NCBI RefSeq assembly: GCF_024707485.1
Contig: NZ_CP102602.1
Location: 248,001 to 312,000, forward strand
Origin: Thermococcus thermotolerans
GTDB lineage: Archaea; Methanobacteriota_B; Thermococci; Thermococcales; Thermococcaceae
DNA length: 64,000 nucleotides
Reading direction: 5' to 3'
This document shows positions 6,801 to 18,989 of this stretch, in pieces; the stretch's first letter is position 1, and each line of letters opens with the position of its first letter. The notes under the pieces were generated by a model, which was given only the letters and a program-made list of their open reading frames with translations, was not told the DNA's origin and ran no database searches. The position numbers and the translations under genes were made by a program.

Positions 6801-8280
6801 TGGATTTTTGGCCTAATGATGCCAAATGACTCTCAAATTTTTTGCTAAATTTTTACTTTTTAATTCAATTATATTTATGTCTCATTTTTATAGGTTTATT
6901 TTTAATATCTTAAATATTTGTCCTTTATTCTTATTATAATTGTCTATAACTTACAATTCAAAAAATTAAATTTTGATGATTTTTGACCACTTTATGTAGT
7001 ATAAATGGGAATGGATGTACATAAATGATCATGCTAATGGGATGGCACTTCTCGATGAAAGACGCCACCCTACTATCAGGCAGTACATTCTCTCCCATGA
7101 ACCCTTAAGGGGCATTGTTAATTAAGCTTCCCAGAGTGCCAAAAGTTTATTCTGAGATCGGGCTTCCATGGAACAAAATTTGGTTACAATTAAAGGTGGT
7201 ATATATGGGGTGCCGAAACCCTGGCATAGGCCCACTTGTTTCATCAAGGGGCACCCATAAAGCAGTAGTGGGTCCAATAAGGCAGAATCTTATAGTTATG
7301 TCTTAGGTTACCCTCACTACGATGGTTATGTTTATCCGCTGTTAGTGCGGATTTAGGAATGTGCTGGGGGATAGAATCCAAGCCCCTGGAACTGGCAGAA
7401 TGTCTGCATCCGTTGTCCTTTCTATGAACATGGTTGTACTTTTGTTTTGGATATAAGGTACATTATATCCAATTTTGAAGTACAGGGTTGGTCATTTTAA
7501 GGGGCATTCCACAGGACTATGACTCCCAAAAGTAAGGCAACAGACATTTAAGTGGGTAAAAGACCCCCTGCGGTTGTTAGGGCCTTTTTGTATAGGGGGC
7601 ATAAACTCCCGCGGATCGGCTCCGTTATATGCAATTCGGGACAGGTAGCGTGGCAGACTCATATCCGTCATACCTCTCATTTAAGTGGTGCCAATCTGGC
7701 CTCCTCCCTGCCGTGAGGGCGAGACTTTCAAAAGAAAAATGTAAATGTCCCCAGTTGGTGTCTGCCATGTGCCCCTTTATTTCCTGGCTTCCTGGCACTA
7801 TTCATAGTGCCTGTAGCGCTCTCACGCCTATCCGAGGTGACTACCTTTATTCGTAACCAAATTTTGTTTTTGTGTTGTCTGTGGGACTCATGGTGATTAT
7901 CTTAGATTTTAGTGGTGTCCCTTAATAGGGATCTAACCGCTTGGCTTGGTGTCTGGATGTATACTTCTTTCGCAGGGTTTATTATATTGAGTGGTAGATT
8001 TTCGGAATTTTTTAGTATATTAAGCAGTGTTAAAATTACTTATTATTTTTTAATAAAATTTAATCTATTTAACTCCGTTTATCTAAACCTCTTGCTAATA
8101 TTATTTTTCTTATTTTTATATATTTCATGTAAATAACTTTTTTAAGTAGTTACAATTCACTCGAAAATTTGAGAGATAAAATCTGACACAGAAATTAGGA
8201 AAGCCTAAAAACAATAGAGCATTGAGTAGGACTCTAATCGCCAAGAAATCCAATAAAAGAGTTTAATCGGACCAGTAGGT
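6801..8280. other. 1.5-kb AT-rich region without a credible gene
   Basis: No open frame here looks like a protein. The short ORFs on both strands have poor composition and no recognisable motifs. The first 200 bases and the part from about 7985 to 8150 are very AT-rich, while 7020-7860 is closer to average. I see a repeated 12-mer TTAAGGGGCATT (7105-7116 and 7497-7508) and a repeated CATTTAAGTGG (about 7547 and 7679). There are hairpins ATCCGC/GCGGAT (about 7336-7354) and GGCACTA/TAGTGCC (about 7793-7811). This could be a decayed mobile element or gene, or carry a non-coding RNA; the sequence alone does not decide. Confidence 0.4.
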
Positions 8281-8284
8281 CTTC

Positions 8285-8641
8285 TCACGGCTTTTCTTCG
8301 GTCATTCCTTTAGGAATCTCGTTGCCCTGTGGCAGGATGATAAGCTCCCTTCCCTCAACCAGCATCTGAGCAACCTTTTTTCTGGCCGAGCTCAGTGCCC
8401 TCCACACCGTACCTCTGGAGACGCCCATCCTCTTTCCGGCCTCTTCCTGCGTTAAGCCTTCATGGTCGACCAGTCTGAGCGCTTCGAACTCCTCGTAAGT
8501 CATGAAAATCGGTGGTTTGGGCTGTCCAACAGGCGGCAACGCGGGATAGAAATATCTAACCTCTGGCACGAACCCGATCATCCTCATTTTCCTTCTCCTT
8601 CCCCTTCCGCGGCCCCTGCCCGGCCCCATTCCCATCGGCAT
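8285..8641 (-). CDS. DUF134 family helix-turn-helix regulator
   Basis: The 118-residue predicted DNA-binding protein has a sigma-like HTH in its centre (LTQEEAGKRMGVSRGTVWRAL, about residues 63-83, which includes one residue of helix context). The N-terminus is very Gly/Arg-rich (GPGRGRGRGRRRK). DUF134 proteins often occur near NifX/NifB-type cofactor-binding genes, and such genes occur at 15.5-17.2 kb here. It could regulate them, which is inference. No clear RBS precedes ATG 8641, but TATA-like CCTATAAAG lies about 30-40 bases upstream, so the transcript may be nearly leaderless. Confidence 0.75.
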   Translation of the reverse strand: MPMGMGPGRGRGRGRRRKMRMIGFVPEVRYFYPALPPVGQPKPPIFMTYEEFEALRLVDHEGLTQEEAGKRMGVSRGTVWRALSSARKKVAQMLVEGRELIILPQGNEIPKGMTEEKP

Positions 8642-10251: not shown

Positions 10252-10400
10252 CCTCCTCCCCGCCTTGGTTGAGGGTTCCAACGAGTTAACCTCTCGCCAT
10301 TGGCAGGGAGGTTTGAAGGGTCTCCATTAGGAACCCTTTCAAGGGTTCCCTGAACCCCTCTGGCCGGACCTCCGGCCAATTACCCCTACCTGCCGTTAAA
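10252..10400 (-). ncRNA. Candidate omega RNA (reRNA) at the tnpB 3' end
   Basis: TnpB nucleases use a guide RNA transcribed from the 3' part of tnpB through the right end of the element. The last 115 bases of tnpB and the GC-rich right end occupy that position here. The location is inferred from the family; no structure was computed. Confidence 0.4.
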
Positions 10401-11593
10401 CCCGACAGGCTCGAGGTTATGGTTTTTACCACCTTCTTCAAAATGTTGAAAGCACCAACAAGGTCGGCGTTAAAGATAAGCCCCGTTGCGGGACACTTAA
10501 ATAACCCGCGAACAAAACGAGCCCCTTCATGGGACTTCCCGCAAACAGGGCAAGTCTTAGAAGTGAAAGCCTCACCAACAACCAAAACCTGAATACCATA
10601 CTCCTCCGCAACTTCTTTAAGACGCTTAATAACTGTATTGAACCGCCACACGTGAGAGAGGAGGAAATTCTGCTTTTTACCCTTCTCAGAATTCCTCGCT
10701 ATGCATTTGGGATAACCGACAATAATCTCAGAAACTCCAAACTCGTAGAGTTTCCTAACCGTTTGTCTAACGGCGGTGTTGATGTAATGTTTGGCTTGGA
10801 GTTTCGCTTTCTCATGCATTCTCCTGAGTTTCCTACTTGTTTTAGCCCCACTCTTGTTGAGTTTTGACTGGTAATCAGCAATCTTCCTCCTCCAGTAAAA
10901 GTCAATACTCTTTAACGGTCTCCCATTCACGAGGAAGCTTTCGCCATTCTCAACATAAACGGCCATCAAGTTGTTTACACCCAAGTCAATTCCCGCGGAA
11001 AGGCTCCCCTTTGGAGTTCTTGAGAGTTTAACCCACTCGTCTTTTTCGAGTTTCTCACTGACTGTAAGGCTCATGTGAGCGTACCATTTCTGCCTTACGG
11101 AGTCGTAAGTGATTTCTAAGCGCCCTTGCTTGCCTTTCAATTGTATTCTGCCTTTAAATTGGATTTCAAAGCGTCTGAACTTGCCGAGACCTTTAAGGAT
11201 TAGTTTGTTTCCTTCAATCTTGTACTGGTCGTTTATGAGAACGATTAAGGGTTTTCTCTTCCCGTCTTCTTTGAGGTAGTTTGGTGGTTTTGGTTTGAGC
11301 CAAGAGGGAAGTTCACCATTCCTCTTCTTTCGAAGGAGTGAGAAGAATGAACGCCAAGCTTCCGCGTTTTTGCGACATATTTGCTGAACTGTTGCTGAAC
11401 CGATTTCTTTTTTAAACTCTTCATAAACGGTTTTTTCAGTTAAATTGAAGTCCACGATTTGCCCTTGGAAGTATTGCTGTCGTCTGAGATAGTTTGCTCT
11501 GTTCCAGACTTTTGCTCCAATGTCGGCTAACTGGAAGAGTGTTTTTTCTTGCTCTTTCGAGGGCTGGAGTTTTACCCTTACTGTTCGCTTCAT
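10286..11593 (-). CDS. tnpB: TnpB RNA-guided endonuclease
   Basis: This 435-residue TnpB has an N-terminal HTH-like region (residues 1-90), a wedge-like middle domain and a RuvC fold. The catalytic acids are recognisable as Asp203 (GIDLGVNN), Glu341 (VVGEAFTSKT) and Asp377 (NADLVGAFNIL). The C-terminal zinc knuckle has CPVC (348-351) and one further Cys at 367, but the fourth position reads KCPATG instead of CxxC. TnpB cuts DNA guided by RNA derived from its own element end and helps the element persist. Mobility would need a TnpA in trans; none is in the window. Confidence 0.93.
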   Translation of the reverse strand: MKRTVRVKLQPSKEQEKTLFQLADIGAKVWNRANYLRRQQYFQGQIVDFNLTEKTVYEEFKKEIGSATVQQICRKNAEAWRSFFSLLRKKRNGELPSWLKPKPPNYLKEDGKRKPLIVLINDQYKIEGNKLILKGLGKFRRFEIQFKGRIQLKGKQGRLEITYDSVRQKWYAHMSLTVSEKLEKDEWVKLSRTPKGSLSAGIDLGVNNLMAVYVENGESFLVNGRPLKSIDFYWRRKIADYQSKLNKSGAKTSRKLRRMHEKAKLQAKHYINTAVRQTVRKLYEFGVSEIIVGYPKCIARNSEKGKKQNFLLSHVWRFNTVIKRLKEVAEEYGIQVLVVGEAFTSKTCPVCGKSHEGARFVRGLFKCPATGLIFNADLVGAFNILKKVVKTITSSLSGLTAGRGNWPEVRPEGFREPLKGFLMETLQTSLPMARG

Positions 11594-15564: not shown

Positions 15565-15951
15565 CTACCCTCTGCCTCCGCTTCTACCGTGGCCACCGCC
15601 AGATCTGAAGACTGCAGTTGTGAGCTCTCCCCGGAGGAAGGCCTTGACGGCCTCTTCGACGGTCATCGTCGGGGATGCGGAAGTGACCTTTATCCCTGCA
15701 GCCTGAAGTACTGCCGCCGAATTTGGCCCAAAATGGCCGGATATAACGACGTCTACTCCCCTGTCGATGCAGAACTGTGCCGCCGTGACCCCGGCTCCCC
15801 TTGACTGGTTATAGCCCGGGTTTTCGACCACCTGAACTTTGGTTATGTGGCCGTCATCAACTCCCACCAGGGTAAACGTGGGGGCTCTCCCGAAGGCCGG
15901 GTTGACCCTATCGTCTAGACCTCCCCTTTCGGTTGAGACGATTATCCTCAT
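15565..15951 (-). CDS. NifX/NifB-type (dinitrogenase iron-molybdenum) cofactor-binding protein
   Basis: The 128-residue protein has the Nif11/NifX-like fold: RIIVSTERGGLDDRVNPAFG, then the PGY...GAGVTAAQ segment and ISGHFGPN, where metal clusters bind in homologues such as the Desulfovibrio orange protein. It ends in a Gly/His/Arg-rich tail. There is no nitrogenase here, so a Mo- or Fe-S-cluster carrier role is more likely than nitrogen fixation. GGAGGTGA precedes the ATG. A degenerate copy of the cluster palindrome sits upstream of its TATA box. Confidence 0.85.
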   Translation of the reverse strand: MRIIVSTERGGLDDRVNPAFGRAPTFTLVGVDDGHITKVQVVENPGYNQSRGAGVTAAQFCIDRGVDVVISGHFGPNSAAVLQAAGIKVTSASPTMTVEEAVKAFLRGELTTAVFRSGGGHGRSGGRG

Positions 15952-15994
15952 GGGTTCACCTCCTTTGGCTCAGGACTGCCGAATTTAAAAAAAG

Positions 15995-16008
15995 TTTGCA
16001 TACGCTCA
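15995..16008 (-). promoter_or_regulatory. Degenerate palindrome site upstream of the NifX-like gene
   Basis: TGAGCGTATGCAAA on the minus strand. It matches the 17175-17188 site at 12 of 14 positions. It lies just upstream of the T/A-rich TATA region of the 15951 gene, the same placement as the 17175 site has for the gene at 17233. Confidence 0.45.
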
Positions 16009-16026
16009 AAAATTAAAGAAAAGGCA

Positions 16027-16608
16027 TCACCACCGGTCGCGCCAGCGTGCCCTTCCTCTCGGCTGGCCGGTTCGGGGGCAGTATCCAAGCCTGGCGCCCC
16101 ATCCCCTGCCGTTGCCCCGTCCACGTCCAAAACCTCTGCCGCGACCTCTTCCCCAGCCGGAACCGTAGGCGTATGCCGGATAGATTGGGTAGGGGCCATG
16201 GACGGGTGCTGCGGCTGCTCCTGCTCCACCTAAGCCTGCCTCTCGTGGGGAGCCTGGAGCGGTTCCTATTCGTCCAGGGCCGCTTCCAATGGTGCTAGTT
16301 ATCGCCTCCCTTACGGGGGTTCCCGGTGCGACTTGGTAGACCCTTATGCCCGCGGCCTGGAGGGCACCAAGGGCATTGGGGCCCACCTGTGGAACTACCA
16401 CGGCATCGACGCCCTCGTTGATCAGGGTCTGAACCGCCAGCGGGCCAATCCCACCGACAGAGCTCGCGGCGGGGTTCTTGAGGACCTTGCTGCTAACTAT
16501 GGTGCCGTTTTCATCCACTTCCGCTATAAGGAACGCCGGAGCCCTCCCGAAAACGGGGGCAACGACGTCATCGATTCCTCCATCGTTCGTGGGTATTGCG
16601 ATCTTCAT
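16027..16608 (-). CDS. NifX/NifB-type cofactor-binding protein with Gly/Arg-rich tail
   Basis: Residues 1-115 are a NifX/NifB-like cofactor domain (MKIAIPTNDGGIDDVVAPVFG, then VVPQVGPNALGALQAAGI). Residues 125-193 are low-complexity, rich in Gly, Arg, Ala and Pro, with repeated GRGRG units. The tail may bind nucleic acid or a partner protein, or simply be flexible; this cannot be decided. ATG 16608 was chosen because the homology begins there and GAGGTTGTGAAG precedes it. A perfect palindrome lies between its TATA box and start. Confidence 0.82.
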   Translation of the reverse strand: MKIAIPTNDGGIDDVVAPVFGRAPAFLIAEVDENGTIVSSKVLKNPAASSVGGIGPLAVQTLINEGVDAVVVPQVGPNALGALQAAGIRVYQVAPGTPVREAITSTIGSGPGRIGTAPGSPREAGLGGAGAAAAPVHGPYPIYPAYAYGSGWGRGRGRGFGRGRGNGRGWGARLGYCPRTGQPRGRARWRDRW

Positions 16609-16637
16609 CTTCACAACCTCTCGTTCCTTTGATATTT

Positions 16638-16651
16638 TGTGCATATGCACA
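16638..16651. promoter_or_regulatory. Perfect 14-bp palindrome TGTGCATATGCACA, likely operator
   Basis: It lies directly downstream of the TATA-like ATTTAAAT (16652-16661, minus direction) of the gene starting at 16608, so a bound protein would cover the transcription start. A 13/14 copy occurs at 17175-17188. Confidence 0.65.
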
Positions 16652-16755
16652 GTATTTAAATCTTTCGGCCACCCTAATGAAGTTGTTCTTATTGTGGTAG
16701 CTGAGGGTTGCTGTGTCAGATCAAGAGGCACGTTTTTCTTTCCTTCTTCCGAGCT

Positions 16756-17160
16756 CTAGAAAAGCGGATGGTTCCGGGCCTTCTTTGCTTGAGCTTGCTC
16801 CCAGAGTTCATTGAAGTTTTTTACAATCCTCCGAAGGGCGGTGCTCAGCTCCCTTGTCCTGGTGAAGACAACCACCTTGTCCGTACCCTCTCGAATCCGG
16901 ATGAAATTGGGCCCCATCCTGAAAGCGGCCAGAACATCAACGTCTGAAAGCTGGTTGATCACGGCCTTGAACTTCTTTGGGTTCCCGTGCCCACCGTCGT
17001 GTTCCTTGAAGTCCCTCGCTTTGTTGTGCCTCTTTTCGAGGAACTTAACGCTTCCATCTTCGCAGACCCTGTAAATCGCAAAGAACTTCGAGTCGCCGTA
17101 GTGGGAATCTGTGAGGGTTTCGTCGTTTTCCATTCCGAACGCGACTCTCAGACACCTCAC
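16756..17160 (-). CDS. NifX-like cofactor-binding protein
   Basis: A 134-residue member of the same fold family, opening LRVAFGMENDETLTDSHYGDS and continuing with a His-containing loop (EHDGGHGN) and a DVDVLAAFRMGPNFIRI strand. It may carry a metal cluster. The GTG at 17160 was chosen because GGTGGTG sits just before it and because the frame farther upstream (to 17187) would cover the TATA box and operator site. It is divergent from the MinD-type ATPase operon and shares that 70-base intergenic region. Confidence 0.75.
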   Translation of the reverse strand: MRCLRVAFGMENDETLTDSHYGDSKFFAIYRVCEDGSVKFLEKRHNKARDFKEHDGGHGNPKKFKAVINQLSDVDVLAAFRMGPNFIRIREGTDKVVVFTRTRELSTALRRIVKNFNELWEQAQAKKARNHPLF

Positions 17161-17174
17161 GGGCACCACCGTTT

Positions 17175-17203
17175 TGAGCATATGCACAAACTTTAAAAGT
17201 CTT
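17175..17203. promoter_or_regulatory. Divergent promoter with near-perfect palindrome and symmetric TATA box
   Basis: The TGAGCATATGCACA site (17175-17188) adjoins CTTTAAAAG (about 17191-17200), which can serve as a TATA box in both directions. The site falls at the transcription start of the leftward gene (16756-17160) and upstream of the TATA of the rightward operon (17233), so one regulator could act oppositely on the two. Confidence 0.6.
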
Positions 17204-17232
17204 TAGGTTGCCCTAATCCTGGAGGTGAGAAC

Positions 17233-18102
17233 TTGCAGATAGCGGTGAGTGGCGGGAAGGGCGGAACCGGAAAGTCAACCGTCGCCGTTAACCTTGCGAT
17301 AGCCCTGCGCGATCACTACGACCTTGTCTTGGCTGATCTCGATGTTGAGGGGCCCAACGATCACCTCTTGCTGGGGATTAGACTGGCCAACGAGGAGCCT
17401 GTTGAGATGTTCATGCCGCAGTTCGACTATGGAAAGTGCATCCGTTGCAGGAAGTGCGCGGAAGTCTGCGAGGAGCACGCGATAATAACCATGCGCGACG
17501 GGACACCCTTTCTGATGCCGAACCTCTGCTCCGGCTGTGGGGCGTGTGATATAGTTTGTCCGGTTTCGGGGGCCATTCTGCCGGGCAAGAAGCTGATGGG
17601 GCACACCTACCTTACCGAGACGCCCTACGGCTTCCCGCTCGTTACAGGGAGGCTCCTTGAGGGCGAGGAGAGGGCAATGCCGATAGTTTCGAGAGCCAAG
17701 AAGCGCGCCAAAGGGCTTGGGAAGGAGCTTTTGATGGTTGACACCGCCGCGGGGACAAGCAACACCGTTTCAAAAGCACTTGAGGACTCAAGGCTCATCA
17801 TAGCCGTCACCGAGCCGACGCCCCTGGGGGTTCACGACGGTGAGCTGATACTCAGACTGGCAAAGATGATGGGCATCCCTGCGGCTGTCGTCGTGAACCG
17901 CTCGGACATCGGCGACGTGGCCAAGGTGTGCGAGATTGCCGGGAAGTACGGTGCGGAGGTAATAGCGGAGATTCCCTACAGCGAGAACGTCATAAGGAGC
18001 TACGTCGCGGGGAGGCCTGTAGTCCTGACGGACTATCCAGAGGCGGAAATCTTCCGGGAGATGGCAGAGAGGGTAGTTGAGCTTCTTGGGGGTGGTGAGT
18101 GA
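17233..18102 (+). CDS. MinD/Mrp-type P-loop ATPase with inserted ferredoxin domain
   Basis: The 289-residue protein has a deviant Walker A motif (SGGKGGTGKST) at its N-terminus. An inserted 2[4Fe-4S] ferredoxin domain (CIRCRKCAEVC and CSGCGACDIVCP, about residues 72-118) follows, then the rest of the ATPase fold (DTAAGT). This architecture is known from the ATPases encoded with the orange protein (ORP) in Desulfovibrio, where they work with a NifX-type Mo/Cu cluster protein. Its start is TTG after GGAGGTGAG. It overlaps the next ATPase gene by four bases, so the two probably form a heterodimer. Confidence 0.88.
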   Translation: MQIAVSGGKGGTGKSTVAVNLAIALRDHYDLVLADLDVEGPNDHLLLGIRLANEEPVEMFMPQFDYGKCIRCRKCAEVCEEHAIITMRDGTPFLMPNLCSGCGACDIVCPVSGAILPGKKLMGHTYLTETPYGFPLVTGRLLEGEERAMPIVSRAKKRAKGLGKELLMVDTAAGTSNTVSKALEDSRLIIAVTEPTPLGVHDGELILRLAKMMGIPAAVVVNRSDIGDVAKVCEIAGKYGAEVIAEIPYSENVIRSYVAGRPVVLTDYPEAEIFREMAERVVELLGGGE

Positions 18103-18989
18103 TGCAGCTTGTCATAGCGAGCGGTAAGGGGGGAGTCGGAAAAAGCACCGTCACGGCATCTCTCCTCTACCTGCTGAAGGACGAGTACAGGTTCGTTGCC
18201 GTCGATGCCGATGCAGACGCGCCTAACCTCGACCTGCTCCTTGGGGTTGAGAGCTGGGAGGAGGAGATGGAACTTGTAGGGGCGAAGGTGGCCCGCATAA
18301 ACACCGGGAGCTGCATAAGGTGCGGCATCTGCCAGGAGCGCTGTCCATACGACTGCATCAAAGTGGTAGACGGCGACTACGTTGTCAGCGAGCTGACCTG
18401 TGAGGGTTGCAACGTCTGCGGCCTCGTCTGTCCGGTTCCGGGGACGATAACGCTGGAAGAAGTCCGCTCCGGCGTGGTTAGGAAAGCGACCACCCGCTAC
18501 GGTTTCCCGCTGATTTCCGCCCAGCTCGACGTCGGAAGACCCAACAGCGGAAAGCTGGTCACCGAGGAGAAGGAGTGGGCGAAGAGGCTCATGGGGGAGC
18601 TCGGCATTGACCACATGATAGTGGACAGTGCCGCGGGCATAGGCTGTCAGGTCATAGCGAGCATTGGCGGAGCGGATCTGGCAATACTCGTGGCGGAGCC
18701 TACCCCCGCTTCCCTCAGCGACGTTCAGAGGGTTTACAGGGTCGTCCAGCACTTCAGACAGCCGGCTTACCTCATCATCAACAAGGCCGACTTCAATCCT
18801 GGCTTTACTGCCCTCAAGGAGTGGGCCGAGGCCGAGGGAATCCCGATACTCGGGGAGATACCCTACGACAGAGCAATTCCGAGGAGCATGAGCATGCTGA
18901 GACCCTTCGTCGAGGCGTTCCCCCACTCGAAGGCGGCTGATGCCATGAGGGAGGTAGTGGGGCGGGTAAAAGACGAAATCCTGAAATAA
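18099..18989 (+). CDS. MinD/Mrp-type P-loop ATPase with inserted ferredoxin domain (second copy)
   Basis: A 296-residue paralogue of the preceding gene. Walker A is SGKGGVGKST. Two ferredoxin Cys clusters follow (CIRCGICQERCPYDC and CEGCNVCGLVCP, about residues 68-113), and DSAAGIG lies near residue 172. It starts at an ATGA-type overlap behind GGTGGTGAG, so translation is coupled. It presumably loads or transfers Fe-S or Mo-containing clusters together with the NifX-like proteins encoded next door. Confidence 0.88.
   Translation: MMQLVIASGKGGVGKSTVTASLLYLLKDEYRFVAVDADADAPNLDLLLGVESWEEEMELVGAKVARINTGSCIRCGICQERCPYDCIKVVDGDYVVSELTCEGCNVCGLVCPVPGTITLEEVRSGVVRKATTRYGFPLISAQLDVGRPNSGKLVTEEKEWAKRLMGELGIDHMIVDSAAGIGCQVIASIGGADLAILVAEPTPASLSDVQRVYRVVQHFRQPAYLIINKADFNPGFTALKEWAEAEGIPILGEIPYDRAIPRSMSMLRPFVEAFPHSKAADAMREVVGRVKDEILK

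What the first reader, a model, noticed from the sequence alone, without database searches (positions are those of the whole stretch)
15995..17188. Shared palindrome TGTGCATATGCACA at three promoters of the ORP-like cluster
There is a perfect 14-bp palindrome at 16638-16651, a 13/14 copy at 17175-17188 and a weaker copy at 15995-16008. At the 16608 and 17160 genes the site covers the likely transcription start. At the 17233 operon and the 15951 gene it lies upstream of the TATA box. A single regulator could repress one set and activate the other.
Basis: seen in the sequence. Interest (0 to 1): 0.6.

Follow-up and report, generated by a model that had tools for sequence, protein, structure and literature searches.

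The report
Operator palindrome of archaeal iron-sulfur regulon
A short mirror-image DNA word sits in the promoters of iron-sulfur storage and trafficking genes across the Thermococcaceae, so it looks like the docking site of an unidentified regulator that turns on the thioferrate store when sulfur is available.

Summary
The three sites are real, at the stated coordinates. The exact 14-mer occurs twice in this 2.07 Mb genome and 148 times in 94 Thermococcaceae genomes (in 85 of them); 0.1-0.5 are expected and the reversed pattern gives 0. Of all 79 exact sites in 47 genomes, 78 lie just upstream of a few families, most tied to iron-sulfur or metal handling: SipA/IssA (thioferrate storage), MinD-type ATPases, a CDF exporter, NifX-like proteins, FmdE. 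A second box, TTAGGnnnnCCTAA, also found at feoAB, flanks the TATA box in SipA and MinD but not CDF or NifX2 promoters. In Palaeococcus pacificus four of the five most S0-induced genes lie behind 13/14 copies of the palindrome, in both architectures (PMC6981617). I conclude it is the operator of the S0-induced IssA regulon, most simply a repressor site relieved by sulfide plus iron. One regulator is supported; opposite signs for the two promoter classes are not. DUF134 is the leading, unproven regulator: found in 85 of 94 genomes, near a site in 44 of 55, with a clade-specific recognition helix and Arg/Gly tail.

The parts
16638..16651 (.). Palindrome 1 (exact TGTGCATATGCACA), directly downstream of the TATA box of the IssA-like gene
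17175..17188 (.). Palindrome 1 copy (13/14): upstream of the TATA box of the + strand MinD operon, downstream of the TATA box of the - strand SipB-like gene
15995..16008 (.). Weak palindrome 1 copy (11/14), upstream of the TATA box of the 15951 gene; better counterparts in orthologous promoters of other genera
16664..16677 (.). Second box TTCGGCCACCCTAA (one mismatch to TTAGGnnnnCCTAA), upstream of the IssA-like gene's TATA box
17203..17216 (.). Second box TTAGGTTGCCCTAA (exact), downstream of the MinD operon's TATA box; the same box type lies in front of feoAB
15970..15983 (.). Degenerate second box TCAGGACTGCCGAA (2 mismatches), downstream of the 15951 gene's TATA box
   Evidence: sequence printed; mismatches counted by eye
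16653..16661 (-). TATA-like element of the IssA-like gene (ATTTAAATA on the - strand)
   Evidence: read from sequence; conserved in the family
17191..17199 (.). Near-palindromic TATA-like element CTTTAAAAG usable by both divergent genes
   Evidence: read from sequence
16027..16608 (-). SipA/IssA-like protein (193 aa): PF02579 domain plus Pro-rich then Gly/Arg/aromatic tail (pI 11.8) with the only Cys
   Evidence: IssA description in PMC5524996
16756..17160 (-). SipB-like/NifX-like protein (134 aa, PF02579); start inferred
15565..15951 (-). NifX-like protein (128 aa, PF02579) with a short Gly/Arg tail
17233..18102 (+). MinD/Mrp-type ATPase with 4Fe-4S motifs (first gene of the pair)
18099..18989 (+). 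Second MinD/Mrp-type ATPase with 4Fe-4S motifs
8285..8641 (-). DUF134 helix-turn-helix protein (118 aa, no Cys, Arg/Gly-rich N-tail of low model confidence): leading candidate regulator, unproven

Best explanation
TGTGCATATGCACA is the operator of a dedicated regulator of the S0/sulfide-induced iron-sulfur storage and trafficking genes of Thermococcaceae (SipA/IssA, SipB-like, MinD-type ATPases, NifX-like proteins, CDF exporter and a few more). It abuts the TATA/BRE element on one side or the other, so a bound dimer should block TBP/TFB/RNA polymerase at both promoter classes. When sulfide and iron are abundant the protein leaves and the genes come on. At SipA, SipB-like and MinD promoters a second, iron-type box (TTAGGnnnnCCTAA) flanks the other side of the TATA box and could give the iron dependence. 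Shown by sequence: the sites, their conservation, gene set, positions and the second box. Shown by others: S0 induction of SipA, PAP_06515 and the MinD-type pair. Inferred: repression as the sign, the signal, and the protein; DUF134 is my leading candidate (about 0.4 on its own).
For: Rarity: 148 exact sites in 94 genomes, expected 0.08-0.55, reversed control 0. Placement: 78 of 79 exact sites (all exact sites of 47 genomes, three of which have none) within 140 nt of the inferred start of about ten families; SipA hit in 46 of 47 genomes at up to 1 mismatch. Position: TATA-like element 5' of the site in SipA 40 of 49, CDF 11 of 13, FmdE 5 of 5, CooC-like 5 of 5; 3' of the site in NifX2 22 of 22 and MinD1 10 of 14 (2 more have both). 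Second box at up to 1 mismatch: MinD1 14 of 14, SipA 39 of 49, SipB-like 9 of 10, against at most 0.4% of shuffled flanks; same box at feoAB in three genomes. Expression: four of the top five S0-induced genes of Pa. pacificus map to three promoters in G002 that carry 13/14 copies; G002's length equals the published 1,859,370 bp. SipA is induced by sulfide only with sufficient iron (PMC5524996 passage). No SurR consensus GTTnnnAAC between 14391 and 19088.
Against: No protein has been shown to bind. DUF134 was not found in 9 of 94 genomes, yet several of these keep good sites; for G068 a 100-N scaffold gap lies where the window's gene order would put the gene, but the other eight are unexplained beyond being fragmented drafts. 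DUF134 genes carry no such palindrome upstream (0 of 34 at up to 3 mismatches), so no autoregulation. DUF134 is not linked to the sites in 11 of 55 genomes (7 of 8 genus-g3 genomes and 4 others). Repression as the sign is inferred from position plus same-direction induction. No S0/iron expression data were found here for CDF, NifX2, FmdE or CooC-like genes; a T. gammatolerans CzcD (CDF) gene did not respond to cadmium (PMC3407056 passage). Suf genes, beside the site in some genomes, were slightly down in Pa. pacificus.
Confidence: 0.7

Rival explanations
1. Dual regulator: repressor where the site lies downstream of TATA (SipA, CDF), activator where it lies upstream (MinD, NifX2, 15951 gene), like TrmBL1 in Pyrococcus.
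For: Two conserved positions; TrmBL1 is reported to do this by position (PMC4706686 passage).
Against: Both classes rise together on S0 in Pa. pacificus. The palindrome touches the BRE region in the upstream class, where a bound protein could as well block TFB.
Confidence: 0.2
2. The binding protein is not DUF134 but another HTH protein, e.g. DUF2250 encoded in the SipB-like operon, the ArsR-type protein beside NifX2, or an unlinked factor.
For: No autoregulation of DUF134, 9 of 94 genomes without a detected DUF134; DUF2250 often lies in the operon behind the palindrome.
Against: DUF2250 found in only 57 of 94 genomes and not in the window's own genome. DUF134 found in 85 of 94 and within 15 kb of a site in 44 of 55. 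The ArsR-type protein's distribution was not tested.
Confidence: 0.5
3. The palindrome is a core-promoter or structural element (BRE/TSS variant, RNA hairpin) conserved with the promoter rather than a regulator site.
For: In the scored promoters it abuts the TATA box.
Against: It lies on either side of TATA, is a perfect inverted repeat, and occurs at only 0-3 exact sites per genome in a recurring gene set.
Confidence: 0.05
4. The induced expression of these genes is due to SurR or only to the second (DtxR-type) box, and palindrome 1 serves another signal.
For: SurR is the known sulfur-responsive regulator of Thermococcales (PMC12162507 abstract in the listing); the second box is shared with feoAB, which is also S0-induced in Pa. 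pacificus.
Against: No GTTnnnAAC between 14391 and 19088. CDF, NifX2, FmdE and CooC-like promoters carry palindrome 1 without the second box.
Confidence: 0.2

Closest known systems
TrmBL1/Tgr regulon (TGM motif) of Thermococcales
   Same: Single motif next to BRE/TATA, mainly downstream (21 of 28 sites) and otherwise upstream (PMC4706686 passage)
   Different: Sugar metabolism; different motif (TATCACN5GTGATA, recalled); effect reported to change sign with position, whereas here both positions respond in the same direction to S0
SurR regulon (GTTnnnAAC, recalled)
   Same: S0 response in Thermococcales
   Different: No consensus in the 4.7 kb around the cluster; SipA induction needs sulfide plus iron (PMC5524996 passage)
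Archaeal DtxR-family iron/metal regulons (FetR/MntR/ZntR, recalled; the paper was not seen)
   Same: Second box TTAGGnnnnCCTAA lies at feoAB, ZIP and Mrp promoters
   Different: Palindrome 1 is a different word and also marks promoters without that box
Desulfovibrio orp operons (sigma54-dependent)
   Same: Divergent operons of PF02579-type and MinD/Mrp-type ATPases under shared control (PMC6345978 passages)
   Different: Archaeal promoter, no sigma54; IssA-type storage protein with cationic tail; different operator

Membership tests
Transcription-factor operator/regulon (cis element) | Occurrence far above chance | tested here: met
   148 exact vs 0.08-0.55 expected; reversed control 0
Transcription-factor operator/regulon (cis element) | Conserved at the same place in orthologous promoters | tested here: met
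   78 of 79 exact sites upstream of recurring families; near-fixed spacing to TATA
Transcription-factor operator/regulon (cis element) | Target genes respond together | tested here: inconclusive
   Published S0 data cover SipA, SipB, PAP_06515 and the MinD-type pair; none found for CDF, NifX2, FmdE, CooC-like genes
Transcription-factor operator/regulon (cis element) | Specific protein binding | not testable with these tools
   needs gel shift or ChIP
IssA (SipA) | N-terminal IPR003731/PF02579 domain | tested here: met
IssA (SipA) | Pro-rich then cationic, Gly/aromatic-rich C-terminal tail holding the single Cys | tested here: met
   against PMC5524996 passages and section 12
IssA (SipA) | Thioferrate binding | not testable with these tools
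   biochemistry
SurR regulon | GTTnnnAAC in the promoter | tested here: not met
   none between 14391 and 19088
DtxR-family regulon (second box) | Box shared with iron/metal uptake promoters | tested here: met
   feoAB in G000, G026, G002; also at genes without an evident metal role
DtxR-family regulon (second box) | Binding by the DtxR homologue | not testable with these tools
   a DtxR homologue (TK0107) is named in PMC12827226; binding untested
DUF134 regulon | DUF134 present wherever the operator is used | tested here: inconclusive
   85 of 94; one miss beside a scaffold gap, the others fragmented drafts
DUF134 regulon | Operator in front of the DUF134 gene itself (common but not required) | tested here: not met
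   0 of 34 DUF134 upstreams carry the palindrome at up to 3 mismatches
DUF134 regulon | Direct binding of DUF134 to the palindrome | not testable with these tools
   needs purified protein

The most novel reading that the evidence does not exclude
DUF134 of Thermococcaceae is the repressor and senses the iron-sulfur store directly. Its Arg/Gly-rich N-tail (low model confidence, probably disordered) resembles in chemistry the IssA tail proposed to hold thioferrate, so the anionic Fe-S polymer (or nascent Fe-S species) would compete with operator DNA and switch on its own storage protein. Its relatives outside the family carry cysteines and a different recognition helix, so sensing and operator would have changed together.
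Probability: 0.1. Interest if true: 0.85.

Novelty: new member of a known kind. Interest (0 to 1): 0.62.

Why it matters
IssA is the thioferrate store of P. furiosus, and its gene was the most highly upregulated of the genes that rise during sulfide production (PMC5524996 passage). In my ten literature searches, which reach only openly licensed papers, I saw no operator or regulator described for it. A conserved operator with a defined gene set makes 'how does the cell sense iron and sulfide together' directly testable by promoter mutation and DNA-affinity capture, adds the CDF exporter and other genes to the candidate regulon, and suggests a two-box logic (palindrome 1 plus iron-type box) for the reported 'sulfide, but only with iron' behaviour.

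Tried and rejected
DUF2250 as general regulator: rejected, found in 57 of 94 genomes and not in the window's own genome. SurR: no site. Search of the other Thermococci (21 genomes): no exact palindrome and a single 1-mismatch match among the 16 genomes whose rows were listed (G094-G109, the last only in part); the rows of G110-G114 were cut off. A different palindrome (TATGAATATATATTCA-like) precedes DUF134 in three outgroup loci (L185, L186, L291); suggestive of a motif switch with the recognition helix, but too few to use. Apparent copies about 200 nt inside SipA genes (TGAGCATTTGCACA) look like coding sequence and were not counted. DUF134 structure and fold search only confirm a sigma-region-4-like HTH (best E 0.03) with a low-confidence N-tail; no close solved relative. 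The named-genome scan brought 12 loci; three gave the DUF134 alignment for the model, four were read without yielding a related site. A P. furiosus transcription-factor survey has no mention of DUF134/UPF0251 in its main text (PMC6316755, term search); two SurR papers have none of SipA/IssA. Dropped before counts: 2-mismatch sites (exact and 1-mismatch only; the 1-mismatch set is incomplete); 47 of 94 genomes are not in the family classification; the linkage count uses the 55 genomes for which I had both coordinates.

Full report
What was checked. The three copies are present as stated. In the 64 kb window alone three matches at up to 3 mismatches are unremarkable (mean 0.87 in shuffles; 6 of 100 shuffles reach 3). 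The whole genome tells otherwise: at up to 2 mismatches there are three places in 2,070,864 bp, the two strong window sites and one exact copy elsewhere, and none for the reversed pattern. The third copy lies at the 5' end of a CDF cation-efflux gene (over the cut-off for the CDF superfamily, below it for MamB, MamM, FieF and other subfamilies).

Family-wide occurrence. Over 94 Thermococcaceae genomes the exact palindrome is in 85, 148 sites in all (0-3 per genome), against 0 for the reversed pattern (sum). Expectation for about 180 Mb is 0.08 (Markov-1) to 0.55 (base composition), both taken from the window's composition. With up to 2 mismatches all 94 genomes have matches; that count includes chance matches, since the control is then mostly 0-3 per genome and up to 5.

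What the sites stand in front of. I fetched every exact site of 47 of the 94 genomes (79 of 148 sites; three of the 47 have none) plus 26 one-mismatch sites (not a complete set). Of the 79 exact sites, 78 lie within 140 nt upstream of the inferred start of a member of a short list: SipA/IssA (alone 33, with SipB-like 7), CDF 13, NifX2 next to a SLAC1-like gene (alone 10, with FmdE 5, with a CooC-like ATPase 5), MinD1 2, Mrp 2, an SBF-family permease 1. The single remaining site (G006) precedes a small Arg/Gly-rich protein. The 26 one-mismatch sites all fall on the same list, mostly MinD1 and SipA. The reference list was drawn from the neighbours themselves, so the point is not that each site has a neighbour but that so few families recur. 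SipA carries a site (exact or 1 mismatch) in 46 of 47 genomes. Pfam supports the labels PF02579, FmdE, Cation_efflux, SBF and ParA/Mrp on examples; 'CooC-like' rests on MinD/ParA/NifH-type domains and general resemblance, 'SLAC1-like' on sequence by eye.

Identity of the cluster. The 16608 gene has the anatomy published for IssA/SipA: a PF02579 (IPR003731) domain, then a proline-rich and Gly/Arg/aromatic tail with the only cysteine (193 aa, tail pI 11.8, Cys177; PMC5524996, passages and one section). The 17233/18099 genes are MinD/Mrp-type ATPases with 4Fe-4S motifs.

Architecture. Aligned on the palindrome with the gene to the right, the TATA-like element lies immediately 5' of the site for SipA (40 of 49; 9 unscored), CDF (11 of 13; 2 unscored), FmdE (5 of 5), CooC-like (5 of 5) and the SBF permease (1 of 1), and 3' of it for NifX2 (22 of 22), MinD1 (10 of 14; 2 both, 2 unscored) and the 15951 type (1 of 3 scored; the other two have a TTTTAA-type sequence by eye); Mrp (2) and SufC (1) were unscored. 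SipB-like rows (8 of 10 with TATA 3') mostly describe SipA's own site seen from the divergent gene. In the window the 17175 copy is shared: upstream of TATA for 17233, downstream for 17160.

A second box. One search showed another conserved inverted repeat, TTAGGnnnnCCTAA, on the other side of the TATA box. At up to 1 mismatch it is beside the palindrome in MinD1 14 of 14 (all exact), SipA 39 of 49, SipB-like 9 of 10 and the 15951 type 2 of 3 (and the SufC row facing one of these), but in 0 of 13 CDF, 0 of 22 NifX2, 0 of 5 FmdE, 0 of 5 CooC-like, 0 of 2 Mrp, 0 of 1 SBF; shuffled flanks give at most 0.4%. In six genomes searched whole it occurs 6-14 times (control 2-8), so single copies can be chance; at the loci read it lies in front of feoAB in G000, G026 and G002, and before ZIP, Mrp and TroA-like genes among others, including genes with no evident metal role (FeoA, Zip, Mrp by Pfam on one example each). 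I take it for a DtxR-type metal box; that attribution is from memory (Leyn and Rodionov 2015, not seen here). The window has it at 17203-17216 (exact) and 16664-16677 (1 mismatch).

Expression. Palaeococcus pacificus DY20341 has a single 1,859,370 bp chromosome (PMC6981617 passage), the length of G002:C1. Its published top S0-induced genes are PAP_06520 SipA (log2 6.23), PAP_06515 (4.29), PAP_06425 (3.74), PAP_01595 (3.43) and PAP_06430 (3.41) (passages). In G002 the SipA gene, the neighbouring NifX-like gene and the MinD-type pair stand behind sites at 1171785, 1171126 and 1159496; all three are 13/14 copies, the one exact copy of that genome being at 1557760 between FmdE and NifX2. Thus both promoter classes are induced by the same treatment. 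Gene identity was matched by family, order and spacing. In T. onnurineus SipA and SipB protein levels rose in sulfur culture (PMC4463584 passages). SipA is induced by sulfide only with sufficient iron (PMC5524996 passage citing Clarkson 2010; the original is not held). T. kodakarensis feo operons rise after 72 h with iron (PMC12827226 passages), which does not fit a simple iron-repressed box and leaves the second box's sign open. No SurR consensus lies between 14391 and 19088.

Mechanism. Best supported: a dimeric repressor at palindrome 1 next to TATA/BRE, displaced when sulfide (with iron) is abundant. Shown: sites, conservation, positions, co-induction of two promoter classes in one species. 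Inferred: repression, dimer, signal. The dual repressor/activator model stays possible but is not needed.

Who binds. DUF134: one match in 84 of 94 genomes and two in one draft (85 of 94 in all); within 15 kb of a site in 44 of 55 genomes, while 7 of 8 genus-g3 genomes and 4 others are unlinked. All 33 distinct Thermococcaceae DUF134 that my pattern caught have no cysteine and the helix SRGT[VLI]WRAL, and those printed have an Arg/Gly-rich N-terminus; 16 outgroup proteins have 1-8 cysteines and mostly SQPTFHRIL. The model shows a confident HTH core and a low-confidence N-terminal third, nearest to sigma region 4. Against: no palindrome in 34 DUF134 upstreams; 9 genomes without a detected gene, of which only G068 has a visible reason, a 100-N gap beside the PTPS gene that neighbours DUF134 in the window. 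I put DUF134 at about 0.4.

Literature. The 14-mer occurs in one held paper, on human telomeres by its title and abstract in the listing. Ten searches gave no operator for sipA/issA in what I saw (listings, and passages or sections of eleven fetched papers); subscription journals are mostly not held.

Verdict. It is a new regulon of a familiar kind rather than a new kind of system.

Noticed in passing
L046:4889-5392 (-), L113:1777-2316 (+), L231:10746-11237 (-): DUF2250 gene with an HKHHTYY stretch often lies in a SipB-like / methyltransferase-like / DUF2250 operon behind the palindrome, yet it was not found in the window's own genome.
   Followed up: partly
L185 (upstream of 1359), L186 (upstream of 1501), L291 (upstream of 4697, - strand): A different palindrome (TATGAATATATATTCA-like) sits at the start of the DUF134-Mrp operon in Thermococci outside the family, where DUF134 has another recognition helix.
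   Followed up: partly
L046:4628-4641: Exact palindrome in front of a small Arg/Gly-rich protein (MPRGWGRGRRRWFGRGR...), the one exact site with no recognised target family.
   Followed up: no
L040:16314, L140:2295, L149:2743, L155:2337: A near-copy TGAGCATTTGCACA recurs about 200 nt inside the SipA gene in several genera; probably coding sequence, but its codon-level conservation was not tested.
   Followed up: no
8195-8208: Exact TTAGGnnnnCCTAA box 3' of the window's DUF134 gene; G024 (length of the T. kodakarensis genome) has one 3' of its DUF134 gene too (L325:1501).
   Followed up: no
10286-11593 (-): TnpB-like transposon protein (by eye, not searched) between DUF134 and the IssA cluster in the window.
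   Followed up: no
L126:2590-2603: Exact palindrome between TATA and start of an SBF-family permease in one genome (G035), suggesting occasional recruitment of other transporters.
   Followed up: no
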